Positions 2-31,087 of a DNA stretch of 64,000 nucleotides are shown piece by piece; the stretch's first letter is position 1; the number at the start of each line of letters is the position of its first letter. A program made the translations under genes and the position numbers. Below the pieces are notes generated by a model. That model made no database searches and was not told the DNA's origin. It saw only the letters and a program-made list of their open reading frames with translations. The stretch is from assembly GCF_013128195.2 (NCBI RefSeq), contig NZ_CP053452.2, positions 2,852,001-2,916,000 on the forward strand. The letters run 5' to 3'. The DNA is from Frigoriglobus tundricola (GTDB taxonomy: Bacteria > Planctomycetota > Planctomycetia > Gemmatales > Gemmataceae).

Positions 2-3000
2 GGCGTGGCCGGGACGTGGAAGGACCTGACGGACTCGGTCAACGCGATGGCCACCAACCTCACCGCGCAGGTCCGCAACATCGCGACCGTCACGACGGCG
101 GTGGCGCGCGGCGACCTGTCGCGCAAGATCACGGTGGACGTGAAGGGCGAGATCCTGGAACTCAAAGAAACCATCAACACGATGGTGGACCAGCTCAACG
201 GGTTCGCGTCCGAAGTGACCCGCGTGGCCCGCGAGGTGGGCACCGAGGGGAAGCTCGGCGGCCAGGCCCAGGTGGGCGGCGTGGCGGGCACGTGGAAGGA
301 CCTGACCGACTCGGTCAACTCGATGGCGTCCAACCTCACGGGTCAGGTGCGCAACATCGCCGAGGTCACCACGGCCGTCGCGAAGGGCGACCTGTCGCGC
401 AAGATCACGGTGGACGTGAAGGGCGAGATCCTGGAGCTGAAGAACACGATCAACACGATGGTGGACCAGCTCAACGGGTTCGCGTCCGAAGTGACCCGCG
501 TGGCCCGCGAGGTGGGCACCGAGGGCAAGCTCGGCGGGCAGGCCGAGGTCCGCGGCGTGGCGGGCACGTGGAAGGACCTGACCGACAACGTCAACTTCAT
601 GGCGTCCAACCTCACGGGTCAGGTGCGCAACATCGCCGAAGTCACCACGGCGGTCGCGAACGGGGACCTGTCGAAGAAGATCACGGTGGACGTGAAGGGC
701 GAGATCCTGGAGTTGAAGAACACGATCAACACGATGGTGGACCAGCTCAACGGGTTCGCGTCCGAAGTGACCCGCGTGGCCCGCGAGGTGGGCACCGAGG
801 GCGAACTCGGCGGGCAGGCCGAGGTCCGCGGCGTGGCCGGGACGTGGAAGGACCTGACCGACTCGGTCAACGCGATGGCCACCAACCTCACGGCGCAAGT
901 GCGCAACATCGCCGACGTCACAACCGCGGTCGCCAACGGCGACCTGTCGCGCAAGATCACCGTCGCGGTGCGGGGCGAGATTCTGGAGCTAAAGAACACG
1001 ATCAACACGATGGTGGACCAGCTCAACGGGTTCGCGTCCGAAGTGAGTCGGGTGGCCCGCGAGGTGGGCACCGACGGCAAGCTCGGCGGGCAGGCCCAGG
1101 TGCCCGGCGTGGCCGGTACGTGGAAGGACCTGACCGACAACGTCAACTCGATGGCCTCGAACCTGACGGGTCAGGTCCGCAACATCGCCGACGTGGCGAC
1201 GGCGGTTGCCAACGGGGACCTGTCGAAGAAGATCACGGTGGACGTGAAGGGCGAGATCCTGGAGCTGAAGAACACGCTGAACACGATGGTGGACCAGCTC
1301 AACGGGTTCGCGTCCGAAGTGAGTCGGGTGGCGCGCGAGGTGGGCACCGAGGGCAAGCTCGGTGGGCAGGCCCAGGTGCGCGGCGTGGCGGGCACGTGGA
1401 AGGACCTGACCGACAACGTCAACTCGATGGCCAACAACCTCACCGGTCAGGTGCGCAACATCGCCGACGTCACGACCGCCGTGGCGCGCGGCGACCTGTC
1501 GCGCAAGATCACCGTCGAAGTGAAGGGCGAGATCCTGGAGCTGAAGAACACGATCAACACGATGGTGGACCAGCTCAACGGGTTCGCGTCCGAAGTGACC
1601 CGCGTGGCCCGCGAGGTGGGCACCGAGGGCAAGCTCGGCGGGCAGGCCCAGGTGCCCGGCGTGGCGGGCACGTGGAAGGACCTGACCGACAACGTCAACT
1701 TCATGGCGTCCAACCTCACGGGCCAGGTCCGCAACATCGCCGACGTGGCGACCGCCATCGCCAAGGGCGACCTGTCGAAGAAGATCACGGTGGACGTGCG
1801 CGGCGAAATTCTTCAGCTCAAAGAGACCATGAACACGATGGTGGACCAGCTCAACGCGTTCGCCGGCGAGGTGAGCCGGGTGGCGCGCGAGGTGGGCACC
1901 GACGGCAAACTCGGCGGTCAAGCCCATGTGCTCGGTGTGGCCGGGACGTGGAAGGACCTGACCGACAACGTCAACTCGATGGCCAACAACCTCACCGGTC
2001 AGGTGCGGAACATCGCGGAGGTGACGATCGCGGTCGCCAACGGGGACCTGTCGAAGAAGATCACGGTGGACGTGCGCGGGGAGATCCTCCAGCTCAAAGA
2101 GACCATGAACACGATGGTGGACCAGCTCCGCTCGTTCGCGGCCGAGGTGAGCCGCGTGGCGCGGGAGGTGGGCACCGACGGCAAGCTCGGCGGTCAGGCC
2201 CAGGTGCCCGGCGTGGGCGGCACGTGGAAGGACCTGACCGACAACGTCAACTCGATGGCCTCGAACCTCACCGGTCAGGTGCGCAACATCGCCGACGTGG
2301 CGACCGCCATCGCGCGCGGCGACCTGAGCCGCAAGATCACGGTGGACGTGAAGGGCGAAATCCTTCAGCTCAAAGAGACCATGAACACGATGGTCGATCA
2401 GCTTTCGGCGTTCGCGTCGGAAGTGACCCGCGTCGCGCGGGAGGTGGGTACCGAGGGGAAGCTCGGCGGTCAGGCCCAGGTGTCCGGCGTGGCCGGCACG
2501 TGGAAGGACCTGACCGACAACGTCAACTCGATGGCCTCCAACCTGACGGGCCAGGTGCGGAACATCGCGGAGGTGACGATCGCGGTCGCCAACGGGGACC
2601 TGTCGAAGAAGATCACGGTGGACGTCCGCGGCGAGATCCTCCAGCTCAAAGAGACCATTAACACGATGGTGGAGCAGTTGCGCTCGTTCGCGTCGGAGGT
2701 GACCCGCGTCGCGCGCGAGGTGGGCACCGAGGGGCGGCTCGGCGTGCAGGCGGTGGTGCCCGGCGTGGCGGGCACGTGGAAGGACCTGACCGACTCGGTC
2801 AACACGATGGGCGCCAACCTCACCGCGCAGGTCCGCAACATCGCGGAGGTGACCACCGCCGTGGCCCGCGGCGACCTGAACCGCAAGATCACGGTGGACG
2901 TGAAGGGCGAGATCCTGGAGCTGAAGAACACGATCAACACGATGGTGGACCAGCTCAACTCCTTTGCCGGCGAGGTCACGCGGGTGGCGCGCGAGGTGGG

Positions 3001-6000
3001 CACCGAGGGGAAGCTCGGGGGCCAGGCCCAGGTGTCCGGCGTGGGCGGCACGTGGAAGGACCTGACCGACAACGTCAACTTCATGGCCTCCAACCTGACC
3101 GAGCAGGTGCGCGGGATCGTGAAGGTCGTGACCGCGGTGGCCAACGGGAACCTGACCCAGCGGCTCGCCGTGCAGGCCAAGGGCGAGGTGGCCGCGCTCG
3201 CGGACACGATCAACGACATGACCGACACGCTCGCCACGTTCGCCGACCAGGTGACCAACGTGGCCCGCGAGGTGGGCGTGGACGGGCGCCTCGGGGGCCA
3301 GGCCAACGTGCCCGGGGCCGCCGGCACGTGGAAGGACCTCACCGGGAACGTGAACCTGCTCGCCGCCAACCTCACCACCCAGGTCCGGGCCATCGCCGAG
3401 GTCGCCACCGCCGTGACCAAGGGCGACCTGACGCGGTCCATTCAGGTCGAGACGCGCGGCGAGGTGGCCGAGCTGAAGGACAACATCAACACGATGATCT
3501 TCAACCTGCGCGAGACCACGGAGCGGAACCGCGAGCAGGACTGGCTGAAGACCAACCTGGCCAAGTTCACCGGCATGCTCCAGGGCCAGCGCGAGCTGAA
3601 CACCGTGGGCCAGATGCTCCTCAGCGAGCTGACCCCGCTGGTCAAGGCGTACCAGGGCACCATCTACCACCTGGGCGGGACCGACGACGACACGGAGCTC
3701 AAGCTGCTCTCCAGCTACGCCCACAAGGGCAAGCGGCTGCGGGAGACCATCGAACTGGGCGAGGGGCTCGCCGGCCAGTGCGCGGTGGAGAAGAAGCGCA
3801 TCCTCCTGACCGACGTGCCGCCGGACTTCATCACCATCGCGTCCAGCCTCGGCGAGGCCCGGCACGTGAGCATCATCGTGCTGCCGGTCCTCTTCGAGGG
3901 GCAGACCAAGGCGGTCATCGAGCTGGCCGCGCTCCAACCGTTCACCGAGGTCAACCTGACCTTCCTCGACCAGCTCACCCAGAGCATCGGCGCCGTGTTC
4001 AACACGATCGAGGCGACCATGCGGACGGAGGGGCTGCTGACCCAGTCGCAGCAGCTCACCGTCGAGTTGCAGTCGCGCCAGAGCGAGCTCCAGAAGACCA
4101 ACGAGGAGCTGGGGACCAAGGCGAAGCTGCTCGCCGAGCAGAACGCCGAGGTGGAGCGCAAGAACGCCGAGGTCGAGCAGGCCCGCCACGCGCTGGAAGA
4201 GAAGGCCGCCGAGCTGGCCCTCACGTCGAAGTACAAGTCCGAGTTCCTGGCGAACATGTCCCACGAGCTGCGCACGCCGCTCAACTCCATCCTGATCCTC
4301 AGCCAGCAGCTCGCCGAGAACGCCCCGGGCAACCTGTCCGCCAAGCAGGTCGAGTTCTCCCGCAACATCAACTCGTCCGGCTCCGACCTGTTGCACCTGA
4401 TCAACGACATCCTGGACCTGTCGAAGATCGAGTCCGGCACGGTGACCGTCGAGGTCGAGGAGATCCCGTTCCCGGGCCTGCGGGACAACATCGACCGCAC
4501 CTTCCGGCACGTGGCCGAGGCCAAGAACCTGCCGTTCCACGTCCACTTCGCCGAGAGCCTGCCGCCGGTCATGGACAGCGACCCGAAGCGGCTGCTGCAG
4601 ATCCTGAAGAACCTGCTGTCCAACGCCGTCAAGTTCACCGCCCACGGGCACGTCGAGGTGCGGGTCGGGCTCGCCACCCAGGGCTGGACCGCCGACCACC
4701 CGGTCCTCGCGAAGGCGGGCCAGGTCGTCGCGTTCGCCGTCGAGGACACCGGCATCGGGATCGCGCCGGAGAAGCAGCGGATCATCTTCGAGGCGTTCCA
4801 GCAGGCCGACGCCGGCACCTCCCGGAAGTACGGCGGCACCGGCCTGGGCCTCGCCATCAGCCGCGAGCTGGCCGTGCTGCTCGGCGGCGAGATCAAGCTC
4901 GCCAGCGTCCACGGCCAGGGCAGCACGTTCACCCTCTACCTGCCCGTGCGGTACACCGGCCCCAACAGCGCGCGGGCCGCGGCCCCGCCCGGGGCCGCGG
5001 CCGCGGCCCGCGAGCGCACGGTCCTGCCCGTCGCCCGCGACGAGCACATCGAGGACGACCGCAACACCGTCGCGGACGGCGACCCCGTGTTGCTCATCAT
5101 CGAGGACGACCCGCACTACGCCCGCATCCTGCTGGGCCTGGCCCGCGACAAGGGGTTCAAGGGCGTCGTCGCCACGAAGGGGGCGACCGGCCTGGCCCTG
5201 GCCCGGAAGTACCGCCCGGCCGCCGTCTCGCTCGACATCTTCCTGCCCGACATGCTCGGCTGGACGGTCCTCAACCAGCTCAAGCTCGACCCGGCCACGC
5301 GGCACATCCCGGTCCAGATCGTGTCGCTGGAGGAGGAGCGGCAGCACGGCCTCGCCCACGGCGCCTTCTCCTACCTCGTCAAGGCGCCCACGACCGACGG
5401 CCTGGAAGCGGCGTTCGACCGGATCAAGGACTTCACCGCGCCCCGCACCAAGCGCCTGCTGGTGGTCGAGGACGACGCCATCGAGCGGGCCGCCATCATC
5501 GAACTGATCGGCTACCACGACATCGAGGTGGCCACCGCCGCCAGCGGCGCCGAGGCGCTCGCGGCGCTGCTCGACCGGCCCTTCGACTGCGTGGTGCTCG
5601 ACCTGCGCCTGCCCGACATGAGCGGCTTCGACGTGCTCACGAAGATGCACGGCGTGCCGGCCCTGGCCGCCGTGCCCGTGGTCGTGTTCACCGGCAAGGA
5701 CCTGAGCCCCGAGGAGCAGACGCGGCTGAGGGCGCTGGCCAAGAGCATCGTCCTCAAGGACGTCCGCTCCCCGGAGCGGCTCCTGGACGAGACCGCCCTC
5801 TTCCTGCACCGGGTCGTCACCGACCTCCCGGCCGAGAAGCAGCGCATGCTGGAGCGGCTGCACAACTCCAAGGAGGTGCTGCGCGGCCGCAAGGTGCTCG
5901 TGGTGGACGACGACGCGCGGAACATCTTCGCCCTCACCTCCGTTCTGGAGAACCAGGAGATGGAGGTGATCAGCGCGACGAACGGCCGGCAGGCGATCGA

Positions 6001-6253
6001 CATCCTGGAGCACACGGCCGGCGTGGACATGGTGCTCATGGACATCATGATGCCCGAAATGGACGGGTACGAGACGATGCGGGAGATCCGCACCGTGCCG
6101 AAGTTCCGCACGCTCCCGATCCTGGCCCTCACCGCGAAGGCGATGAAGGGGGACCGCGAGAAGTGCCTCGACGCCGGGGCCAGCGACTACATCGCCAAAC
6201 CGGTGAACACGGACCAGCTGGTGTCGCTCATGCGCGTGTGGCTGTTCCGCTGA
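2..6253 (+). CDS. poly-HAMP hybrid histidine kinase (5' partial)
   Basis: Cytoplasmic multi-domain hybrid sensor kinase whose start lies before the window; the frame is open from the first bases. Counting from the codon at nt 5, residues 1-1196 are 13 near-identical 92-residue HAMP-like units, each opening GTWKDLT. Then come a GAF domain (about 1200-1345), a coiled coil (about 1350-1405), a HisKA domain with phospho-acceptor H1420 in SHELRTPL, and an HATPase domain with N box [10 protein letters not shown] (about 1536) and G boxes DTGIGI and GGTGLGL. Three receiver domains follow with Asp at 1744 (SLDIFLPD), 1866 (VLDLRLPD) and 2013 (VLMDIMMPE). The order resembles group III fungal (Nik1/Os-1) and related bacterial poly-HAMP kinases, which sense osmotic or envelope stress; the signal here is unknown. 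A second hybrid kinase starts 32 nt downstream, probably in the same operon. Confidence 0.95.
5..3592 (+). repeat. 13 tandem 276-bp HAMP-coding repeats
   Basis: The HAMP-coding units begin at 5, 281, 557, 833, 1109, 1385, 1661, 1937, 2213, 2489, 2765, 3041 and 3317, an exact 276-bp period without indels. Units 1-11 are nearly identical at nucleotide level; the last two are clearly diverged, which fits recent duplication or gene conversion in the N-terminal part of the array. More units may lie upstream of the window. Confidence 0.95.
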
Positions 6254-6285: not shown

Positions 6286-8397
6286 ATGAGCACGACCACC
6301 CCCGGCGGCCCGACCGGCCCCCGGCCGCCGGCGCCGGCGGAGCCCGCGGGCGCCGAGCCGATCAACATCCTGATCGTGGACGACGAGCCGAAGAACCTCA
6401 CCGTCCTCGAAACGGTCCTGAACGACCCCGCGTACCGGCTGGTGCGGGCGGGGTCCGCGGACCAGGCGCTACTCGCGCTCGTCGTCGAGGAGTTCGCGCT
6501 GCTCATTCTGGACGTCCGGATGCCCGGGATGACCGGCTTCGAACTGGCCAAGATGATCAAGGAGCGCAAGAAGACCGCCCGCGTGCCGATCATCTTCCTC
6601 ACCGCGTACTACAACGAGGACCAGCACGTCCTCGAGGGCTACGGGACGGGCGCGGTGGACTACCTGCACAAGCCGGTGAACCCGGCCGTCCTCCGCTCCA
6701 AGGTCGCCGTGTTCGCCGACCTGCACCGCAAGACCCGCGAGGTCGGGGCGGCCAACCGCGCCCTGCTCGCCGAGGTGACCGAGCGGCGCCGGGCCGAGGA
6801 GCGCCTGCGCGAGCTGAACGACACGCTCGAAGAGCGGGTCGCGGAGCGCACGGAGGCGCTGCGGGAGAGCGAGACGCGGATGCGGCTGGCGCAGGACGCG
6901 GCCCGCATCGGCACGTTCGACTGGAACGTCCAAACCGGCGCGTACGTGTGGACGCCGGAACTGGAGGCCATGTACGGGCTGCCCCCGGGCGGCTTCGGGG
7001 GCACGCCGGCGGCGTGGGAGCAGCTCCTCCACGCCGAGGACCGGGCCGAGGCGGTGCGCCTCGTCGCGCGGGCGTTCGAGACCGGGCTCCCGGTCGAGGG
7101 CGAGTGGCGCGTCCCCTGGCCCGACGGGAGCGTGCACTGGCTGATGAGCCGGTTCCAGGTGTTCAAGAGCGCCACCGGCGCGCCGCTCCGCATGACCGGG
7201 GTGAACATCGACATCACCCGGCGCAAGCAGGCGGAGGAAGTGCTCCGGGCGTCCGACCGGCAGAAGAACGAGTTCCTGTCGATGCTGGCCCACGAGTTGC
7301 GGAACCCGCTCGCCCCGATCCGCAACGCCACCGAGGTGCTCAAGCAGTGCGGCGCCGACCCCGGCCGCCTGCGGTGGGCGCACGGCGTGATCGACCGCCA
7401 ACTGGCGCACCTCGTGCGCCTCGTGGACGACCTGCTCGACGTGTCGCGGATCACCCTGGGCAAGATCCGCCTGTCGGTCGAGCCGACCGAACTGGAGGCC
7501 GTCCTCGGCCAGGCGGTGGAGGCCGTGCGCCCGCTGGTGGACAAGTTCGGCCACCACCTCGAGGTCGCGCTGCCCCCGCACCCGGTTCACCTGCGCGGCG
7601 ACCCCACGCGCCTGGTGCAGGTGTTCGTGAACCTGCTGACCAACGCCGCCAAGTACACCGAGGCGGGCGGGCACATCCGCCTCGCGGCGGCCCGAACGGA
7701 CCCGGGCGCGGAACCGGGGGGCGTCCCGGCGGTCCGGGTGCGCGTGCGGGACACCGGGATCGGGATCGCCCCCGACCTGCTCCCGAGCGTGTTCGACCTG
7801 TTCACCCAGGCGAGCCGGTCGCTCGACCGGTCACAGGGCGGCTTGGGCGTCGGCCTGACTCTGGTGCGCCGGCTCGTCGAACTCCACGGCGGGACCGTTG
7901 AGGCGCACAGCGACGGGGTGGGCCGCGGGAGCGAGTTCACCGTAACGCTGCCGGTCCCGGACGTGCAGGGGACCGACGAGCGGCCGTCCGGGGCGGAGCG
8001 GATCGAGCCGCGCGCCGATCCGGGGCCGTTGCGGGTGGTCGTGATCGATGACAACGTCGACGGGGCCGAGAGCCTGGCCGATCTCATCGGCCTTCTCGGT
8101 CACGAGGTCCGGATCGCCCATGACGGGGCCGCGGGCATCGGGCTGGTCCGCGACTTCGAACCCGACATCGTGCTGCTCGACATCGGGTTACCGGGGATGG
8201 ACGGCTACGAGGTGGCGCGGCGGCTCCGCCGCGATGCCGCCACGCGGGCCGTACTCGTCACGCTCAGCGGGTACGGGCGGGAGGAGGATCGAACGCTGTC
8301 CCGGGAGGCCGGGTGCAAGCAGCACTTCGTGAAGCCCGTGGATCTGGGCACGCTGCAAACGATTTTTTCGACGATCCGCCCCGCCGCCCGGGTCTAG
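6286..8397 (+). CDS. hybrid histidine kinase REC-PAS-HisKA-HATPase-REC
   Basis: A 703-residue cytoplasmic kinase with no membrane segment. An N-terminal receiver domain (D76 in LILDVRMPG, KPVN signature near 125) is followed by a coiled coil (about 150-200), a PAS fold (about 205-325), HisKA with H336 in LAHELRNPL, HATPase (NLLTNAAKYT near 449, DTGIGIAPD near 489) and a C-terminal receiver (D632 in LLDIGLPG). The ATG at 6286 follows the preceding kinase stop by 32 nt, so the two are probably co-transcribed and this protein may receive phosphate from the poly-HAMP kinase through its N-terminal receiver. That partnership is inference. The gene is followed by a perfect 45-bp inverted repeat that probably ends the transcript. 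Confidence 0.9.
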   Translation: MSTTTPGGPTGPRPPAPAEPAGAEPINILIVDDEPKNLTVLETVLNDPAYRLVRAGSADQALLALVVEEFALLILDVRMPGMTGFELAKMIKERKKTARVPIIFLTAYYNEDQHVLEGYGTGAVDYLHKPVNPAVLRSKVAVFADLHRKTREVGAANRALLAEVTERRRAEERLRELNDTLEERVAERTEALRESETRMRLAQDAARIGTFDWNVQTGAYVWTPELEAMYGLPPGGFGGTPAAWEQLLHAEDRAEAVRLVARAFETGLPVEGEWRVPWPDGSVHWLMSRFQVFKSATGAPLRMTGVNIDITRRKQAEEVLRASDRQKNEFLSMLAHELRNPLAPIRNATEVLKQCGADPGRLRWAHGVIDRQLAHLVRLVDDLLDVSRITLGKIRLSVEPTELEAVLGQAVEAVRPLVDKFGHHLEVALPPHPVHLRGDPTRLVQVFVNLLTNAAKYTEAGGHIRLAAARTDPGAEPGGVPAVRVRVRDTGIGIAPDLLPSVFDLFTQASRSLDRSQGGLGVGLTLVRRLVELHGGTVEAHSDGVGRGSEFTVTLPVPDVQGTDERPSGAERIEPRADPGPLRVVVIDDNVDGAESLADLIGLLGHEVRIAHDGAAGIGLVRDFEPDIVLLDIGLPGMDGYEVARRLRRDAATRAVLVTLSGYGREEDRTLSREAGCKQHFVKPVDLGTLQTIFSTIRPAARV

Positions 8398-8409
8398 CGG
8401 AGTGTCAAT

Positions 8410-8510
8410 CCGAGAGTCTCAGGTCATAAGTCGAAAGTCGTAAAGTCGAAGACCGAAATTGTTCAGGTCTTCGACTTTACGACTTTCGACTTATGACCTG
8501 AGACTCTCGG
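8410..8510. repeat. perfect 45-bp inverted repeat, likely terminator
   Basis: Arms 8410-8454 and 8466-8510 are perfectly complementary over 45 nt with an 11-nt loop. The arm contains iterations of AAGTCGAAAGTCGTAAAGTC. It lies between the kinase operon (+) and the tRNA array (-), which converge here, so it could terminate both. A diverged copy of the same motif occurs at 22057-22091. Confidence 0.85.
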
Positions 8511-8518
8511 ACAAGATG

Positions 8519-8591
8519 TGCCCCGGCCAGGAGTCGAACCCGGAACCTCACGTTCGAAGCGTGGCGTGATATCCGATTTCGCCACCAGGGC
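8519..8591 (-). tRNA. tRNA-Arg(TCG)
   Basis: Minus-strand cloverleaf of 73 nt: acceptor GCCCTGG/CCGGGGC, anticodon loop CTTCGAA, T-loop TTCGACT, discriminator A. Last gene of the array in the direction of transcription. CCA is not encoded; the discriminator is followed by CAT. Confidence 0.85.
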
Positions 8592-8615
8592 AGTTGCACT
8601 CGTCCGTCTCTGGAG

Positions 8616-8704
8616 CGGAGGGGGTGGGATTCGAACCCACACGCCCCGTGAGGGGCTATCGCTTTAGCAAAGCGACCCGGCCAGGCCGTATCCGGCTCCC
8701 GTCC
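8616..8704 (-). tRNA. tRNA-Ser(GCT)
   Basis: Class II tRNA of about 89 nt with a long variable arm, anticodon loop TTGCTAA, T-loop TTCGAAT and discriminator G typical of serine. The acceptor GGACGGG/CCCCTCC has one C-C mismatch, so the 5' end could be off by a few bases. CTC follows position 73. Confidence 0.8.
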
Positions 8705-8748
8705 GTGCGTCCATCACCCGCGCGGGTACGCGGGGTTCCGATCGGGGA

Positions 8749-8844
8749 TGCGGTTGCGAGTGCCGGTCGCGGGATGGGGAACGAACCCCAGTCGGCCGGA
8801 CGTTTGTCTGCCCCCGCACCCCGCGGCCGGCGCTCGCAACCGCA
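8749..8844 (-). other. tRNA-like element inside a 25-bp stem
   Basis: Arms 8749-8773 and 8820-8844 pair over 25 bp with two G-U wobbles. Inside, on the minus strand, 8767-8825 (59 nt) has a perfect 7-bp acceptor-like stem CGCGGGG/TCCCGCG, a T-arm-like hairpin TGGGG-TTCGTT-CCCCA and an A in the discriminator position, but only about 28 nt where the D and anticodon arms should be and no recognisable anticodon loop. It sits in a tRNA slot of the array. It could be a decayed tRNA or a tRNA mimic; the sequence does not decide. Confidence 0.5.
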
Positions 8845-8849
8845 CCCAG

Positions 8850-8920
8850 TGGACCCGCCGGGAATCGAACCCGGACTACAGGCATGCCATACCCGCGTCA
8901 TACCGTTAGACCACGAGCCC
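8850..8920 (-). tRNA. tRNA-Ala(GGC)
   Basis: 71 nt, acceptor GGGCTCG/CGGGTCC containing the G3-U70 pair that specifies alanine, anticodon loop ATGGCAT, T-loop TTCGATT, discriminator A, trailer CTG. Confidence 0.85.
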
Positions 8921-8938
8921 ACGTTTCGGCACTGTCAG

Positions 8939-9006
8939 TGGAACCGCGGGGAGTCGAACCCCGTCGTCGTGTGTGCAAGACACAACTCTCGCCCGCGAGC
9001 GATCCC
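8939..9006 (-). tRNA. tRNA-Ala(TGC), short D arm
   Basis: Only 68 nt. Acceptor GGGATCG/CGGTTCC keeps G3-U70, anticodon loop CTTGCAC, T-loop TTCGACT, discriminator A, trailer CTG. The D arm is shortened, so activity is less certain than for a canonical tRNA-Ala. Confidence 0.7.
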
Positions 9007-9015
9007 GGCGCCCAG

Positions 9016-9086
9016 TGGACCCGCGGGGAGTTGCACCCCGATTTCCCGCGTGCGAAGCGGGCGTCTTCCTGTTGGACGACGGCCCC
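9016..9086 (-). tRNA. tRNA-Ala(CGC), unusual T-loop
   Basis: 71 nt, anticodon stem CCCGC/GCGGG around loop TTCGCAC, acceptor GGGGCCG/CGGGTCC with G3-U70 and one G-G mismatch. The T-loop reads TGCAACT instead of TTCRANY, so U55 is absent. Discriminator A, trailer CTG. Confidence 0.7.
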
Positions 9087-9114
9087 ATCTGTCGGCGCCT
9101 ATTGGGACGCCGAG

Positions 9115-9196
9115 TGACCCCGGTGGGACTCGAACCCACACGCCTCACGGCAGCCGGCTCTCAACCGACTCTGACTACCAGTTCCAGCACGAGGTC
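9115..9196 (-). tRNA. tRNA-Leu(GAG)
   Basis: Class II, 82 nt: acceptor GACCTCG/CGGGGTC, anticodon loop TTGAGAG, long variable arm TGCCGTGAGGC, T-loop TTCGAGT, discriminator A, trailer CTC. A regular leucine tRNA. Confidence 0.85.
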
Positions 9197-9210
9197 GTTT
9201 CGATCACCAG

Positions 9211-9294
9211 TGGCCCAGGAGGGACTTGCACCCTCACGCCTGTTACGGCACCGGCTTCTGAGACCGGCGTGACTCCTAATTCCACCACCAGGCC
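9211..9294 (-). tRNA. tRNA-Leu(CAG), class II
   Basis: 84 nt with long variable arm, acceptor GGCCTGG/CTGGGCC, anticodon loop CTCAGAA, discriminator A, trailer CTG. The T-loop is TGCAAGT, the second of three UGCAA-type T-loops in the array. Confidence 0.8.
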
Positions 9295-9321
9295 AGTTCC
9301 GTACCGCGGAGCGGCACGAAG

Positions 9322-9391
9322 TCGCGGAGCCTGGGACTCGAACCCAGCGATCCGGGCATATGAAACCCGGTTGAGCGCCTGCCCGCCCGCG
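9322..9391 (-). tRNA. tRNA(CAT), degenerate acceptor
   Basis: About 70 nt. Anticodon loop TTCATAT on stem CGGGT/GCCCG, T-loop TTCGAGT. The acceptor CGCGGGC pairs with GCTCCGCG only if one U is bulged, so this copy may be decaying. Anticodon CAU could be elongator Met or, if lysidine-modified, Ile. Confidence 0.6.
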
Positions 9392-9434
9392 AGAGTGTTG
9401 TTGTGCCGCGCGGCCGGTCGCCGCGCCGCTCCAG

Positions 9435-9502
9435 TTGCGGACCTGGGAGTTGAACCCAGCATCCAGGCTTATGAGACCCGGCCGGGCGCCGGCCCGTCCG
9501 CA
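9435..9502 (-). tRNA. tRNA(CAT)
   Basis: 68 nt, perfect acceptor TGCGGAC/GTCCGCA, anticodon loop CTCATAA, T-loop TTCAACT, discriminator A, trailer CTG. Similar in body to the CAT tRNA at 9322-9391. Elongator Met or Ile2 cannot be told apart by eye. Confidence 0.7.
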
Positions 9503-9516
9503 ATACCAATACCAGG

Positions 9517-9591
9517 TGGTGACGGTGGGATTCGAACCCACACTGTCCACGTTCTGAGCGTGGCGACTCCTTCCCGTTGGTCTACATCACC
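9517..9591 (-). tRNA. class-I tRNA with Leu anticodon CAG
   Basis: 75 nt, acceptor GGTGATG/CGTCACC, D stem GAC/GTC, anticodon stem CCACG/CGTGG around CTCAGAA, five-nt variable loop ACAGT, T-loop TTCGAAT, discriminator A. The anticodon reads CUG (Leu), but the long variable arm of leucine tRNAs is missing. Followed by CCT rather than CTG. Confidence 0.75.
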
Positions 9592-9629
9592 ATGTGGGAA
9601 CGTACCGTTGGTGAATCCATCCGTTCCAG

Positions 9630-9702
9630 TGACCCGTGGGGGAATCGAACCCCCGTTTACAGGTTGAGAACCTGTCGTCCTGTGCCGCTAGACGAACGGG
9701 CC
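9630..9702 (-). tRNA. tRNA-Glu(CTC)
   Basis: 73 nt, acceptor GGCCCGT/ACGGGTC, anticodon stem ACAGG/CCTGT around TTCTCAA, T-loop TTCGATT, discriminator A, trailer CTG. Confidence 0.85.
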
Positions 9703-9731
9703 GTGCGTAACACCCAATCATTCCTATCAAG

Positions 9732-9804
9732 CGGCTCGTACGGGAATCGAACCCGCATCGCCAGGTTGACAACCTGACATCCTTAACCGTTGGAAGAACG
9801 AGCC
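9732..9804 (-). tRNA. tRNA-Asp(GTC)
   Basis: 73 nt, acceptor GGCTCGT/ACGAGCC, anticodon loop TTGTCAA, T-loop TTCGATT and discriminator G as expected for aspartate. Trailer CTT. Confidence 0.85.
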
Positions 9805-9822
9805 TCACGAAATCCGGACCAG

Positions 9823-9908
9823 TGCCCCGGGTGGGAATCGAACCCACATTGCCCACAAAGGGCGACTGCTTTACAGGCAGTCTGGCGGCCCACCGCGCGT
9901 CCGGAGGC
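9823..9908 (-). tRNA. tRNA-Tyr(GTA)
   Basis: Class II, about 86 nt: anticodon stem ACTGC/GCAGT around CTGTAAA, long variable arm, T-loop TTCGATT, discriminator A, trailer CTG. The 5' acceptor strand pairs with CCGGGGC only with a bulged C, so the 5' end is approximate. Confidence 0.75.
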
Positions 9909-9930
9909 ATTTTCCCGGCGGTTGCCGGAG

Positions 9931-10005
9931 TAGCACGGGAGGGATTCGAACCCACACACACCAAGGTTTGAGCTTGGTCGCTGCTTCCTGTTGGCGTACC
10001 GTGCC
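9931..10005 (-). tRNA. class-I tRNA with Leu anticodon CAA
   Basis: 75 nt, acceptor GGCACGG/CCGTGCT (first pair G-U), D stem CGC/GCG, anticodon stem CCAAG/CTTGG around CTCAAAC, variable loop TGTGT, T-loop TTCGAAT. Like the gene at 9517-9591 it has a leucine anticodon on a body without a long variable arm, and the two share a CAAC(G/A)GGAAG D-loop core. Confidence 0.7.
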
Positions 10006-10024
10006 TCAACGCTGCACTCACCAG

Positions 10025-10095
10025 AGCCCCCGGCGGGAATCGAACCCACACGTCCGCCATACCAAGACGGCAGGCTGCCACTACATCACAGGGGC
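10025..10095 (-). tRNA. tRNA(GGT) on a Gly-like body
   Basis: 71 nt, acceptor GCCCCTG/CGGGGGC, discriminator U, anticodon loop TTGGTAT (anticodon GGU, Thr). Body and U73 closely match tRNA-Gly(GCC) at 10175-10245, differing mainly in the anticodon arm and acceptor. It may be a Thr acceptor or a chimera charged with Gly. Confidence 0.65.
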
Positions 10096-10097
10096 GG

Positions 10098-10172
10098 TTA
10101 CAGTGGGCAGCAAGCAACAGACATCATCCGCCGTCAACTGCTCACTGCTCACTATTCACTGCTCACTCCATC
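10098..10172. repeat. AGTGGGC/GCTCACT-type intergenic repeat
   Basis: Between two tRNA genes: starts with ACAGTGGGCAG and ends with iterations of CTGCTCACT. Same family as the elements at 23805-23912 and 25123-25230. It shows that this repeat family also invades the array. Confidence 0.6.
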
Positions 10173-10174
10173 AG

Positions 10175-10245
10175 AGCGCCCAGTGGGAGTCGAACCCACA
10201 CGTCCGCCATGGCAAGGCGATAGGCTACCGCTACATCATGGGCGC
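10175..10245 (-). tRNA. tRNA-Gly(GCC)
   Basis: 71 nt, acceptor GCGCCCA/TGGGCGC, anticodon loop TTGCCAT, T-loop TTCGACT, discriminator U as in glycine tRNAs, trailer CTG. Confidence 0.85.
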
Positions 10246-10271
10246 GTCGTTCACGAACCGGACCGGGCCAG

Positions 10272-10342
10272 AGCATCCGGCGGGAGTTGCACCCGCGTAC
10301 CCACTTTGGAAGAGTGGCGTGTTGCTGTTACACCACGGACGC
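10272..10342 (-). tRNA. tRNA-Gly(TCC), unusual T-loop
   Basis: 71 nt, acceptor GCGTCCG/CGGATGC, anticodon stem CCACT/AGTGG around CTTCCAA, discriminator U, trailer CTG. The T-loop is TGCAACT, the third case in this array lacking U55. Confidence 0.8.
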
Positions 10343-10353
10343 ACCCCGACGAG

Positions 10354-10425
10354 TACCCCGCACGGGACTCGAACCCGCCTGGACGGCTTGAGAGGCCGTC
10401 GACCTCACCCGAAGTCGAACGGGGC
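10354..10425 (-). tRNA. tRNA-Glu(CTC), second copy
   Basis: 72 nt, acceptor GCCCCGT/GCGGGGT with a G-U first pair, anticodon stem ACGGC/GCCGT around CTCTCAA, T-loop TTCGAGT, discriminator A, trailer CTC. Closely related to tRNA-Glu(TTC) at 10715-10788. Confidence 0.8.
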
Positions 10426-10436
10426 GTTCGGAACAG

Positions 10437-10510
10437 TGGAAGCGGTGGGAATCGAACCCACGTACACCTGCTTAAGAGGCAGGCTCCTCGCCAACGTCGG
10501 ACACACTTCC
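10437..10510 (-). tRNA. tRNA-Lys(CTT)
   Basis: 74 nt, acceptor GGAAGTG/CGCTTCC, anticodon stem CCTGC/GCAGG around CTCTTAA, T-loop TTCGATT, discriminator A, trailer CTG. Confidence 0.85.
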
Positions 10511-10516
10511 GGACAG

Positions 10517-10589
10517 CGGTTCCGAGGGGAGTCGAACCCCCGCTCTTCTCCTTGACAGGGAGACGGCCACTCCACTGGCCCGCGGAACC
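10517..10589 (-). tRNA. tRNA-Asp(GTC), second copy
   Basis: 73 nt, perfect acceptor GGTTCCG/CGGAACC, anticodon stem TCTCC/GGAGA around CTGTCAA, T-loop TTCGACT, discriminator G, trailer CTG. Body differs strongly from the Asp copy at 9732-9804. Confidence 0.8.
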
Positions 10590-10610
10590 CTAAACATCGG
10601 CACTCAGCAG

Positions 10611-10691
10611 CAGGTGGCGGAGGAATCGAACCCCGCAGGACGAGCCGTCGGTTTTGGAGACCGAGTGCGTTCCCAGACGCGATCACCACCT
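10611..10691 (-). tRNA. tRNA-Trp(CCA)
   Basis: 81 nt, acceptor AGGTGGT/GCCACCT with A1-U72 and discriminator G as in bacterial tRNA-Trp, anticodon stem TCGGT/ACCGA around CTCCAAA. The variable region of about 12 nt is longer than usual for Trp. Trailer CTG. Confidence 0.8.
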
Positions 10692-10714
10692 GTATTTCGT
10701 CACGTCGAACCCAG

Positions 10715-10788
10715 TACCCCGTGCGGGAGTCGAACCCGACCTCTGCGGCTTGAAAGGCCGCCGACCTCAACCGGAAGTCGAACGGGGC
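10715..10788 (-). tRNA. tRNA-Glu(TTC)
   Basis: 74 nt, acceptor GCCCCGT/ACGGGGT, anticodon stem GCGGC/GCCGC around CTTTCAA, T-loop TTCGACT, discriminator A, trailer CTG. First gene of the array in the direction of transcription. Confidence 0.85.
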
Positions 10789-10803
10789 GTTCATTCGCAC
10801 CGC

Positions 10804-10844
10804 AAAAAAGCGAACCGGCCGGGGGTCGCTTCACCCCCGGCCGG
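10804..10844 (-). terminator. intrinsic terminator upstream of the tRNA array
   Basis: Perfect 12-bp GC stem (10815-10826 with 10833-10844) and a six-nt loop; read on the minus strand it is followed within five nt by six U residues (A-run 10804-10809). It would stop minus-strand transcription just before the array, insulating the array from any upstream reading. Confidence 0.7.
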
Positions 10845-11213
10845 CGCGGTTGCCATAACATGGCGTGCCGGGGGTTATCCGCTCGTATCCAGTTCCGCAC
10901 TCGTATCCAAACCGCGACCCGCTTCCGAGCGGCCCATAAGGCTGGCGGCGAGATCGATCGTCGTCGCGGCGACCGCAGTGGTCGGTAAGCGAAGGTCATA
11001 GCTCGCGTGCCAGAGTGTCATGGTTGTAGCGTGTGTACGTTGTGATCCGTGTTGTGGTATTGGCGAGTGAGTCGGGCGTTGGGGGAACCGTTGGGTTCCT
11101 CTCATCACCCGTGGGTCGGTTCCCACTCGCGGTGTACGATAGATAGACGCGGAACTCATAGATAGGTTCGCACAGAACCCAAAAATGTTTCGCACCTCGT
11201 TGAGACGTGGCCC
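10845..11213. other. intergenic, no gene seen
   Basis: No coding signal on either strand between the terminator and ribD. It should hold the ribD promoter, but I see no confident -35/-10 pair. Confidence 0.5.
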
Positions 11214-12344
11214 GTGAATGAATTGGAACACTGGATGCGGCATGCTCTTGCGCTCGCCGCAAAGGGTCGCGGGTCTGTTGAGCCCAACCCGATGGTCGGC
11301 GCGGTCGTATTGGACGCGGCCGGGCGACTCGCGGGCGAGGGCTGGCACCAGACGTTCGGCGGCCCGCACGCCGAAGTCTTTGCCCTTTCGAGTGCCGGCG
11401 AACGCGCCCGGGGCGGCACACTCGTCGTCACGCTCGAACCGTGCTGCCACCACGGGAAGACGCCGCCGTGTACCGACGCGGTGCTGAGGGCGGGAATCGT
11501 CCGCGTCGTCGTCGCGATGGCCGATCCGTTCCCGAAAGTGGCCGGGGGCGGGATCGCGCTCCTCCGCGCCGCGGGGGTTGAGGTTCACGTCGGGCTGTGC
11601 GAGGCGGACGCGGTCGCGCTGAACGCGCCGTACTTGAAGCTGCTCCGAACCGGGAGGCCGTGGGTTCACTTGAAGTGGGCCATGACCCTCGACGGCAAGA
11701 TCGCCACGTGGACCGGCGATTCCAAGTGGATCAGCGGCGAGGAGTCGCGCCGCCGCGTTCACGAGTTGCGCGGGCGGGTGGACGCGATCATCGTCGGGCG
11801 CGGCACGGTGGTCGCGGACGATCCGTTGCTGACGGCCCGGCCCCCCGGCCCGCGCGCGCCGGCGCGAGTGGTTCTGTCGGCGTCCGGCGAGCTTCCGGAG
11901 CGGTGCCAGTTGCGCACGACCGCACGCTCGGTCGGTTCCGATACCGGAGGGCCGGTGATCGTGTACACCGCGAACGCGGACAAGCTCGTCGGTTGGGCGG
12001 CCGACGGCGCGGACGTGGTGGCACTCGGCGACGGGGTCTCGCTCGACGCGGTCCTCGCGGACCTCGGGCGGCGACGGTTCACGAACGTGCTGATCGAAGG
12101 CGGGGCCGGGCTGCTGGGTTCGGCGTTCGATGAACGGGTGGGTGACGAATTTCACGTGTTCGTCGCGCCGAAGCTGATCGGCGGGACCGCGGCCCCGGCG
12201 CCGCTGGGCGGTTTAGGGGTTCAACAAATGGCCGACGCGGTCGCGCTGGACCGCGTCACCTCTGAACCGTTCGGTGCGGACGTGTACATTCACGGCTTCG
12301 CCCCGCGAGGGGGGCAGTCGGCCGGCCCACCGGTCACCGGTTGA
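11214..12344 (+). CDS. ribD: riboflavin biosynthesis deaminase/reductase RibD
   Basis: Bifunctional enzyme of riboflavin synthesis: the N-terminal zinc deaminase (about 1-145) deaminates the diaminopyrimidine product of GTP cyclohydrolase II and the C-terminal reductase (about 148-365) reduces its ribosyl chain with NADPH. Zinc ligands are visible as H52 (with catalytic E54 in PHAEVF) and C77 and C86 in EPCCHHGKTPPC; the reductase shows KWAMTLDGKIA and GDSKWISG. At 376 residues it has normal full length. GTG 11214 is chosen because the nearby ATG at 11218 is out of frame. No other rib gene is adjacent. The 3' end overlaps the end of the convergent FG-GAP gene by 11 nt. Confidence 0.92.
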   Translation: MNELEHWMRHALALAAKGRGSVEPNPMVGAVVLDAAGRLAGEGWHQTFGGPHAEVFALSSAGERARGGTLVVTLEPCCHHGKTPPCTDAVLRAGIVRVVVAMADPFPKVAGGGIALLRAAGVEVHVGLCEADAVALNAPYLKLLRTGRPWVHLKWAMTLDGKIATWTGDSKWISGEESRRRVHELRGRVDAIIVGRGTVVADDPLLTARPPGPRAPARVVLSASGELPERCQLRTTARSVGSDTGGPVIVYTANADKLVGWAADGADVVALGDGVSLDAVLADLGRRRFTNVLIEGGAGLLGSAFDERVGDEFHVFVAPKLIGGTAAPAPLGGLGVQQMADAVALDRVTSEPFGADVYIHGFAPRGGQSAGPPVTG

Positions 12345-30430: not shown

Positions 30431-31087
30431 CTGGTTCTGCGTCGCGGGAGGACGTTCATGTTGAGTCGGTTCCGTCGGGTCATCCCGATTCCTCGCGGGT
30501 CGCGTCAACCAGATGGGGGGAACGATACCCTCTCTGCGGGATGTGTCAACGGCTAAGGCAGTGACACCGCGTTGCCAATGAAATATCGCCGGAAAATCAA
30601 TCTCGGTAAAGAGTTGTGGCTAATCGCTGTGGGGCGCGAAGCCACGTCAAGTCTCGATTCGGGCTGTGTAGCGCAGAAACGGAGGAACCCAGGCAGGCCG
30701 CGTAATTCGTTGCGGGAGTGAGGGTTGAGAAATTTGCGAGACGTGGGTGAAGGAGAAGAGAAGAAAAAATCGAATGCAGAGAAAAAGAAAATGCCTCCGC
30801 CTGTGCCGTGTGAGTCGTTCTTCGGGAACCCGCTAATTGAGAAGGGCGCCTCGCGGGTGAGTTTCGGATCCCACTACAGTCCCGACGACGAGCGCCGGGG
30901 ATGGGCTTGCGAGCGTCACCCGCATTAAAATAAAGGCTCCCAAGCAGGTTAGTGTAGGTTCGCCAATAGCACACGACTCATCACGAACACCGCAGAGGCG
31001 AACGAATAATACCACCACATGCGCGTTGAAGCAAACCGAGTGTCCACGCGCGAAATCGGTACGCGGGCGCCCCTGGCGGCGAGCGGA
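30431..31087. other. intergenic, no gene seen
   Basis: About 650 nt with lower GC, including a purine-rich stretch near 30740-30795. No convincing coding frame or known RNA. Confidence 0.4.

What the first reader, a model, noticed from the sequence alone, without database searches (positions are those of the whole stretch)
8519..10788. Dense array of 22 mostly divergent tRNA genes on one strand
22 tRNA-shaped genes lie in 2.3 kb, all minus, with 9-80 nt spacing. Only a subset of amino acids is covered (three Ala, three Glu, two Asp, two Gly, four Leu anticodons; none for Phe, Val, Pro, His, Gln, Asn, Cys). Bodies of isoacceptors differ strongly from each other. Such supplementary arrays are known from some mobile elements and phages; no integrase lies next to it here.
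Basis: partly seen in the sequence, partly recalled or inferred. Interest (0 to 1): 0.75.

Follow-up and report, generated by a model that had tools for sequence, protein, structure and literature searches.

The report
Backup tRNA set behind codon-polling switch
This planctomycete bacterium carries a second set of transfer RNAs in long arrays, and each array sits behind a tiny gene made mostly of the amino acids its own tRNAs carry plus a stop-or-go RNA switch, so the cell probably turns on spare tRNAs only when its normal ones run short.

Summary
The array is real: 20 tRNA genes by ARAGORN, one more by Rfam and one by eye, all minus, at 8518-10788. The genome also has a full ordinary tRNA set and a second array (B, 214 kb away) with most amino acids that this array (A) lacks. 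The DNA of both arrays matches all 18 same-genus genomes searched; tandem tRNA runs occur in 68 of 148 genomes of the class. The new point is upstream. Both arrays have the same promoter-like motif (its exact form occurs only twice in 9.86 Mb), a leader ORF of 48 or 36 codons, and a strong terminator just before the first tRNA. Leader peptides consist mostly of amino acids served by their own array (A leaders 98% set A; B leaders 87% set B). Swapping leaders and arrays over 24 genus-by-array groups never reached the observed fit (0 of 2000 permutations in each of 60 draws), for amino acids and codons. A segment at the leader stop codon can pair with the terminator arm. Best reading: ribosome-mediated attenuation polls many codons at once and releases replacement tRNAs when a ribosome stalls. 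Regulation and function are untested.

The parts
11140..11171 (-). promoter-like motif GCGAACC-N14-GCGTCTAT (ECF-sigma-like, recalled type)
   Evidence: Pattern GCGAACCN{13,15}CGTCTATN{1,2}A has 2 matches in the whole 9.86 Mb genome, one before each array; reversed-pattern control 0. A wider form is upstream of 61 of 93 arrays against 23 of 1723 control windows. The motif was read from these loci.
10875..11021 (-). leader ORF, 48 aa, MTLWHASYDLRLPTTAVAATTIDLAASLMGRSEAGRGLDTSAELDTSG
   Evidence: Start, frame and DTSG end (DTDG in G015) recur in the genus; translation; no Pfam family; composition tests.
10867..10874 (-). antiterminator strand CCCCCGGC directly after the leader stop codon
   Evidence: Complementary to 10834-10841; pairs in the fold of 10828-10878 (-24.5 kcal/mol, but 10 of 200 shuffles fold as well).
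10834..10841 (-). GCCGGGGG, part of the terminator 5' arm, shared by both folds
10814..10845 (-). intrinsic terminator (13 pairs, then TCGCTTTTTT) before the first tRNA
   Evidence: fold of 10804-10862 -34 kcal/mol, 0 of 200 shuffles as stable. The scan found 1 such site where shuffles gave 2.5, so position and conservation carry the weight, not the count.
10714..10788 (-). tRNA-Glu(TTC), first gene
   Evidence: Rfam 44.1 bits
10610..10691 (-). tRNA-Trp(CCA)
10516..10589 (-). tRNA-Asp(GTC)
10436..10510 (-). tRNA-Lys(CTT)
10353..10425 (-). tRNA-Glu(CTC)
10271..10342 (-). tRNA-Gly(TCC)
10174..10245 (-). tRNA-Gly(GCC)
10024..10095 (-). tRNA-Thr(GGT)
9930..10005 (-). tRNA-Leu(CAA)
9824..9906 (-). 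tRNA-Tyr(GTA)
9731..9804 (-). tRNA-Asp(GTC)
9629..9702 (-). tRNA-Glu(CTC)
9515..9591 (-). tRNA-Leu(CAG)
9434..9502 (-). tRNA-Met(CAT)
9322..9390 (-). CAU-anticodon tRNA-like gene
   Evidence: by eye; not called by ARAGORN or Rfam here
9210..9294 (-). tRNA-Leu(CAG)
9114..9196 (-). tRNA-Leu(GAG)
9016..9086 (-). tRNA-Ala(CGC)
   Evidence: Rfam 44.8 bits; not called by ARAGORN; anticodon read by eye
8938..9012 (-). tRNA-Ala(TGC)
8849..8920 (-). tRNA-Ala(GGC)
8615..8704 (-). tRNA-Ser(GCT)
8518..8591 (-). tRNA-Arg(TCG), last gene
11214..12344 (+). ribD, divergent neighbour conserved beside the array (not part of the operon)

Best explanation
The locus is a conserved chromosomal operon of back-up tRNAs, one of two that together with scattered singles form a second tRNA set covering all 20 amino acids. 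Expression is probably controlled by ribosome-mediated transcription attenuation. RNA polymerase starts at the shared promoter motif and a ribosome translates the leader ORF. If every leader codon is read promptly, the ribosome reaches the stop codon and covers the segment beside it, so the terminator forms and the array stays off. If a ribosome stalls in the leader because a tRNA is cleaved, uncharged or scarce, that segment is free, pairs with the terminator's 5' arm, and the array is transcribed. The leader is rich in codons that the array's own tRNAs can read, so it senses mainly the shortages it can cure and shuts off once they are cured. Shown by computation: gene content, conservation, shared promoter motif, leader composition, terminator, alternative pairing. 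Inferred: attenuation itself, charging by the ordinary synthetases, and the natural trigger (tRNA-cleaving toxins or phage defence, starvation, translation inhibitors).
For: Strict promoter motif: 2 matches in the genome, one before each array. Of 93 arrays with at least 250 nt upstream, 61 have the class-wide form against 23 of 1723 control windows and 2 of 1860 shuffles; the spacer is 14 nt in 48 of the 67 whose spacer was counted (the form was read from these loci). Leader fit in the window's genus: 15 A leaders 0.977 to set A and 0.193 to set B; 15 B leaders 0.872 to set B and 0.429 to set A. Swap test on every leader found (63 leaders, 24 groups): 0 of 2000 permutations in each of 60 draws, for amino acids (0.741 against 0.596) and codons (0.589 against 0.434); still 0 without the window's genus. 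Other frames of the same DNA fit 0.58-0.61 against 0.775. Serine: arrays with only Ser-GCU have leaders with 65 AGY and 11 UCN codons; arrays with a UCN-reading Ser tRNA have 22 AGY and 67 UCN. Stop-codon segment against terminator arm: 15 of 25 at or below 0.05 against shuffles, combined p 6e-16; in 11 aligned array-B leaders six pairs are kept in all 11 and two change on both sides. tRNA stems: 9593 of 9678 cells paired and 158 of 562 predicted pairs compensated in 26 clusters.
Against: No transcript, charging or phenotype data. 30 of 99 array runs show no motif in the fetched upstream DNA (some are cut by contig ends). 6 of 69 motif-bearing arrays gave no ATG leader. Some leaders fit poorly (L247 0.14, L279 0.27, L214 0.35, L212 0.46, L250 0.56, L267 0.58); these arrays have 3 to 8 called genes. 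10 of 25 antiterminator tests exceed 0.05, and in G014, G009 and G015 the array-A segment has one or two mismatches. The window's antiterminator fold alone is no better than 10 of 200 shuffles, and the full stretch folds as the terminator. Codon fit is uneven: in A leaders Thr (64 observed, 82.8 expected), Leu (98, 108.5) and Arg (6, 8.6) lie below expectation. G012 and G017 have shrunken arrays.
Confidence: 0.8

Rival explanations
1. The clusters are horizontally acquired, partly degraded and dispensable tRNA genes, as suggested for planctomycetes in PMC4807772.
For: That paper (passages read) states it. Array tRNAs score lower than most main ones, some relatives have shrunken arrays, and no tool calls the 22nd gene.
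Against: 18 of 18 same-genus genomes match each array's DNA. Gene order is conserved, stems are kept by compensation, and leader and array are matched.
Confidence: 0.06
2. The array is regulated mainly by its promoter (an alternative sigma factor), and the small ORF encodes a functional small protein rather than a sensor.
For: The promoter motif is specific; the ORF start and end are conserved in the genus.
Against: Leader composition and codons track the array's tRNA set across genera, and arrays A and B of one genome have unlike leaders. The promoter may still give a second layer of control.
Confidence: 0.1
3. The second tRNA set is orthogonal, charged by its own synthetases for a separate translation programme.
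For: Array bodies are divergent, mean identity 0.64 to the main set, and complete over 20 amino acids with array B and singles.
Against: No doubling seen in the two synthetase families searched: PF00133 matches fall in 5 ORFs (one below the cut-off) and PF00587 in 4. Other synthetase families were not searched and the ORFs were not named.
Confidence: 0.04
4. The array supplements codon usage, as proposed for some phage tRNAs.
For: Extra gene copies of common anticodons.
Against: All array-A anticodons are already in the main set; a sensor leader would not be needed.
Confidence: 0.03

Closest known systems
Ribosome-mediated transcription attenuators of amino-acid biosynthesis operons (trp, his, leu, thr type, recalled; PMC1183508, abstract start in the search listing only)
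   Same: Leader ORF rich in regulatory codons, terminator, alternative antiterminator; regulatory codons are cognate to what the operon supplies.
   Different: The operon supplies tRNAs, not amino acids. One leader polls many amino acids at once, and its codon set tracks the array's anticodons.
Anabaena PCC 7120 trn operon of 26 tRNA genes, repressed by TrcR (PMC10272220: abstract, introduction, one results section and discussion read)
   Same: Large tRNA operon beside a dispersed housekeeping set, induced by translation-blocking antibiotics.
   Different: Plasmid-borne and repressed by an RHH protein. Here the arrays are chromosomal, widespread in the class, and have a leader-terminator switch. 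Whether the Anabaena operon has a leader was not checked.
tRNA array units of mycobacteria, their phages and plasmids (PMC5966550 abstract and discussion; PMC12803027 passages)
   Same: 20 or more clustered, divergent, redundant tRNA genes.
   Different: Many of those are on mobile elements; no leader switch is mentioned in what I read. Here the locus is fixed in the genus.
Degenerate tRNA gene clusters of planctomycetes (PMC4807772, passages read)
   Same: Very likely the same class of loci, in relatives (not compared by sequence).
   Different: That paper reads them as degraded, often horizontally acquired and perhaps dispensable.
Phage tRNAs that evade anticodon nucleases (PMC10264068: abstract and results read)
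   Same: Divergent spare tRNAs against tRNA depletion.
   Different: Carried by the cell itself and apparently inducible by the shortage; resistance to nucleases was not tested here.

Membership tests
tRNA array unit | dense run of about 20 or more tRNA genes (threshold recalled) | tested here: met
   20-22 genes in 2.27 kb
tRNA array unit | redundant with a dispersed main set | tested here: met
mobile-element tRNA array | carried by phage, plasmid or integrative element | tested here: not met
   conserved gene order and ribD neighbour; no phage or plasmid record covers 80% of it, listed rows at most 6%. Integrase genes were not searched for.
ribosome-mediated transcription attenuator | short leader ORF between promoter and terminator | tested here: met
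   ATG leader in 63 of 69 motif-bearing arrays
ribosome-mediated transcription attenuator | regulatory codons cognate to the operon's product | tested here: met
ribosome-mediated transcription attenuator | intrinsic terminator and mutually exclusive antiterminator | tested here: met
   by sequence and folding only; 10 of 25 antiterminator tests not significant
ribosome-mediated transcription attenuator | transcription responds to stalling in the leader | not testable with these tools
   needs a reporter assay
T-box riboswitch | T-box leader that binds uncharged tRNA | tested here: not met
   no T-box family among Rfam matches of the window at gathering score or of 8350-11250 at E up to 1
Anabaena-type trn operon | TrcR repressor binding at the promoter | not tested
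   the paper describes TrcR as restricted to cyanobacteria and two cyanophages; no search made here
Anabaena-type trn operon | silent in normal growth, induced by translational stress | not testable with these tools
   no expression data

The most novel reading that the evidence does not exclude
Planctomycetes carry an ancient, self-adjusting tRNA back-up: a second tRNA set for all 20 amino acids whose operons are switched on by leader genes that poll many codons at once. Each leader evolves to contain the codons its own array can read, so loss of almost any tRNA, for example by a phage-triggered or competitor anticodon nuclease, releases nuclease-divergent replacements until the shortage is cured. 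It would be, to my knowledge, the first attenuator that senses the tRNA pool as a whole.
Probability: 0.6. Interest if true: 0.95.

Novelty: new variant of a known kind. Interest (0 to 1): 0.9.

Why it matters
Large redundant tRNA arrays lack a general explanation and have been called degenerate or mobile. Here the DNA itself states which shortages the cell expects: the leader is a readable record of the tRNAs the array replaces. If right, it gives a general tRNA-pool sensor, a direct way to test what supplementary tRNAs are for, and a way to recognise such operons elsewhere (leader composition against array content). It also predicts that tRNA depletion is a recurrent threat for planctomycetes.

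Tried and rejected
Mobile-element origin: searched phage and plasmid collections; 0 records cover 80% of the array, and the rows listed (21 of 21 plasmids, 20 of 152 phages) show matches of tRNA size, at most 6% of the query. Orthogonal synthetases: two families searched, no doubling seen. Wider regulon: a relaxed motif gave 9 matches in the genome with 3 in the reversed control, so apart from the two arrays these may be chance. Occurrence outside the class: the phylum pattern was badly designed; it misses the window's own arrays because the ATGA distance is too short, its control also rings, and I draw nothing from it. The palindrome at the array's 3' end (8412-8510) is a dispersed repeat, 80 matches on both strands in the genome, so I do not count it as a part. 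The Rfam microRNA matches to it are below their cut-offs. The Anabaena plasmid was not held under the accession I recalled, so I could not check that operon for a leader. Literature: ten searches listed no title or abstract start about leader-peptide control of a tRNA array; most subscription papers are not held, and a recalled DOI of the 2021 Anabaena paper was not found.

Leader choice rule: longest ATG ORF after the motif. It mis-picks at least G005 array A (wrong frame; a conserved-frame ORF ending DTSG exists), and for the window it takes an in-frame upstream ATG (76 aa); I used the conserved 48-aa start. For the A and B figures I left out G005 array A (mis-picked) and had no ATG leader for G015 array B; sets A and B are unions that I defined. 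The 25 representatives were chosen by me, one per genus and array type, with an extra one in some genera; one search repeats the swap test on all 63 leaders, mis-pick included, without choosing. In one search I aligned 11 of the 15 array-B leaders and 15 array-A leaders. My first terminator finder mis-picked many hairpins and was replaced by a stem search. Arrays are runs of 3 or more ARAGORN genes with gaps up to 1600 nt in loci I had fetched, so amino-acid sets miss genes that ARAGORN does not call. The motif forms were read from these same loci before they were counted.
Full report
Observation. ARAGORN finds 20 tRNA genes at 8518-10788, all on the minus strand. Rfam adds one at 9016-9086, Ala(CGC) by eye. 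A 22nd CAU-anticodon gene near 9322-9390 is visible by eye only. The window lies at 2852001-2916000 of contig 1 of a 9.86 Mb, two-contig genome. The best ribD matches in named genomes are labelled Gemmataceae, Gemmata or other planctomycetes.

It is supplementary. Rfam RF00005 gives 101 matches in the genome at E <= 1. I ran ARAGORN on the matched regions and split the result by hand: a dispersed main set (45 distinct sequences, 44 anticodons, all 20 amino acids) and divergent genes, namely this array (A), a second array (B) at 3076765-3079085 with Asn, Gln, Lys, Phe, Gly, Pro, Arg and Ile, and 14 scattered genes, some of them odd, including Cys, His and Val. A, B and the scattered ones together cover all 20 amino acids. 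Array-A genes have mean identity 0.64 to the best same-isotype main gene.

It is old and vertically inherited. The DNA of array A matches all 18 same-genus genomes searched and that of array B likewise (40 relatives plus own in each; lists capped). Gene order is conserved with gaps (Glu-Trp-Asp-Lys-Gly-Thr-Leu-Tyr-Asp-Glu-Leu-Met-Leu-Ala-Ser-Arg), and in many relatives Val, His and Thr follow at the end, so the scattered divergent Val and His of this genome are probably displaced members (not aligned). ribD is the divergent neighbour in G008. Contig lengths and positions put it beside the array in G001, G004, G007, G011, G012 and G014 too; others were not checked. In 148 genomes of the class, 68 hold three tightly spaced T-arms in tandem, in 9 of 16 family labels, with no reversed-pattern match. 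Some arrays are larger: 27 tRNAs for all 20 amino acids in G120, and 37 in G126.

The genes are not decaying. I clustered 480 array tRNAs of the genus with the anticodon masked. The 26 clusters of 6 or more hold 456 genes. On pairs predicted from the same alignments, 9593 of 9678 stem cells are paired and 158 of 562 pairs have compensated changes. Within clusters the amino acid is mostly the same; the exceptions are neighbouring families that merged (Gly with Thr, Asp with Glu, Val with Asp) and three single genes (Arg and Ile in the Met cluster, Gln in the Phe cluster).

The switch. Upstream of array A in the genus lie a conserved block GCGAACC-N14-GCGTCTAT, a short ORF with conserved ends, and a terminator just before tRNA-Glu. 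Array B has the same block, a different ORF (MSRFMKRPVNPQQPRQQRGRGFGPFFNPNPIRTSTG) and a terminator before tRNA-Asn. The strict motif occurs exactly twice in the genome, once before each array; the reversed control is 0. In fetched arrays with at least 250 nt upstream, a class-wide form is present in 61 of 93, against 23 of 1723 other windows of the same loci and 2 of 1860 shuffles; in the 67 whose spacer was counted it is 14 nt in 48. The forms were read from these loci, so the counts describe them. That it is an ECF-type promoter is recalled, not tested.

The leader matches its array. In the window's genus 15 A leaders consist 97.7% of amino acids of set A and contain no Phe, 0.3% Pro, 0.5% Gln and 1.1% Asn; 15 B leaders consist 87.2% of set B. 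Across the class I took 63 leaders by one rule from the 69 motif-bearing arrays. They fall in 24 groups (16 genera, 6 families). Pairing leaders with arrays at random never reached the observed fit (0 of 2000 permutations in each of 60 draws): 0.741 against 0.596 for amino acids and 0.589 against 0.434 for codons. It also holds for the 16 groups with at most 14 amino acids outside the window's genus: 0.658 against 0.489, and 0.516 against 0.340. Groups of one family are not fully independent. Other frames of the same DNA fit less well (0.58-0.61 against 0.775). Examples: G051 array Glu Asp Leu Met Ser Arg has a leader containing ...MLRAMTRESSESLDRSERFSLECESLERLSQLELSL...; G048 array Asn Gln Leu Lys Phe Pro has MKPQLPNPPFNQPQPNSG.

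Codons match too, unevenly. Against codon usage of seven window ORFs, A leaders have 352 of 461 codons readable by the array (324.0 expected) and B leaders 172 of 235 (150.9 expected). In A leaders Ser is 56 of 58 where 20.5 is predicted and Val 32 of 33 where 14.0 is predicted; in B leaders Gly is 36 of 43 where 13.1 is predicted. Below expectation in A are Thr (64 of 106, 82.8), Leu (98 of 120, 108.5) and Arg (6 of 21, 8.6); Ala in A and Pro, Arg and Ile in B are near it. Across all leaders, arrays whose only Ser tRNA reads AGY have 65 AGY and 11 UCN codons, and arrays with a UCN-reading Ser tRNA have 22 AGY and 67 UCN (37 codons from arrays without a called Ser tRNA left out). Leaders within a genus share ancestry; the group draws allow for that in the swap test but not in the codon counts.

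The alternative fold. In the window the strand directly after the stop codon, CCCCCGGC (10874-10867), can pair with GCCGGGGG (10841-10834) of the terminator's 5' arm. Without the 3' arm that stretch folds so at -24.5 kcal/mol (10 of 200 shuffles as well); the terminator folds at -34 (0 of 200), and the whole stretch folds as the terminator. In 25 representatives the stop-codon segment pairs with the terminator arm and loop better than shuffles at 0.05 or below in 15, median 0.0275, combined p 6e-16. In 11 of 15 array-B leaders that I aligned, the six pairs GACGCC/GGCGTC are kept in all 11, with changes to GATGCC/GGCATC, GACATC/GGTGTC and wobble forms, so two pairs change on both sides; of 15 array-A leaders three (G014, G009, G015) have one or two mismatches (counted by eye). 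Because the segment starts at the stop codon, a ribosome that finishes the leader would cover it, while a ribosome stalled on an earlier codon would leave it free. This gives one logic for all polled codons.

Function. The simplest reading is a back-up supply opened by tRNA shortage and closed by its cure. The array tRNAs are presumably charged by the ordinary synthetases: PF00133 matches fall in 5 ORFs and PF00587 in 4, with no doubling seen (other families not searched). The trigger in nature is open: anticodon nucleases, starvation and translation inhibitors would all stall the leader. The Anabaena trn operon, induced by translation-blocking antibiotics (PMC10272220), supports the role by analogy; its control by the TrcR protein differs.

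What was known. A 2016 genome paper notes 'degenerate tRNA gene clusters' in many planctomycetes and calls them often horizontally acquired and perhaps dispensable (PMC4807772, passages). I found no description of the leader, terminator or promoter in the searches listed under Tried and rejected. Both ingredients, tRNA arrays and ribosome-mediated attenuation, are known; their union, with a leader whose codon set tracks the array, is to my knowledge new.

Limits. All evidence is from sequence. 30 of 99 array runs show no motif in the fetched upstream DNA, 6 of 69 motif-bearing arrays gave no ATG leader, and six leaders fit below 0.6. Two genomes of the genus have shrunken arrays (G012, G017). 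Nothing was learned about groups outside the class.

Noticed in passing
window 8412-8510: Near-perfect palindrome just past the array's last gene; 80 matches on both strands in the genome, a dispersed inverted-repeat (MITE- or REP-like) element.
   Followed up: partly
window 30790-31001 (-): 6S RNA by Rfam (52.6 bits).
   Followed up: no
window 5-6253 (+): Very long hybrid histidine kinase with 13 HAMP matches, GAF and three receiver domains; it may start before the window.
   Followed up: no
L032, G000:C1:9201581-9201899: Three (ARAGORN) or four (Rfam, one weak) similar tRNA-like genes in tandem, with Glu(CTC), Ser(GCT) and TCA anticodons on much the same backbone.
   Followed up: no
G000:C1:1882341-1882426: Leu(GAG) gene identical to the main gene except in its 5' part, as an integration or duplication at a tRNA 3' end might leave.
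   Followed up: no
window about 8760-8842 (-): A further degenerate tRNA-like stretch between Ser(GCT) and Ala(GGC), seen by eye, called by no tool.
   Followed up: no
L031 10766-13086: In array B a coding stretch on the other strand (an amidohydrolase by eye, not searched) separates tRNA-Ile(GAT) from the other genes; the far Ile gene recurs in L193, L196, L197, L202 and L203.
   Followed up: partly
array leaders L091, L092, L223, L253-L255, L258, L260-L262: Leader peptides of differing composition share the end ...LRL before the TGA at the antiterminator segment, so the last codons may be kept for RNA pairing rather than for the peptide.
   Followed up: partly
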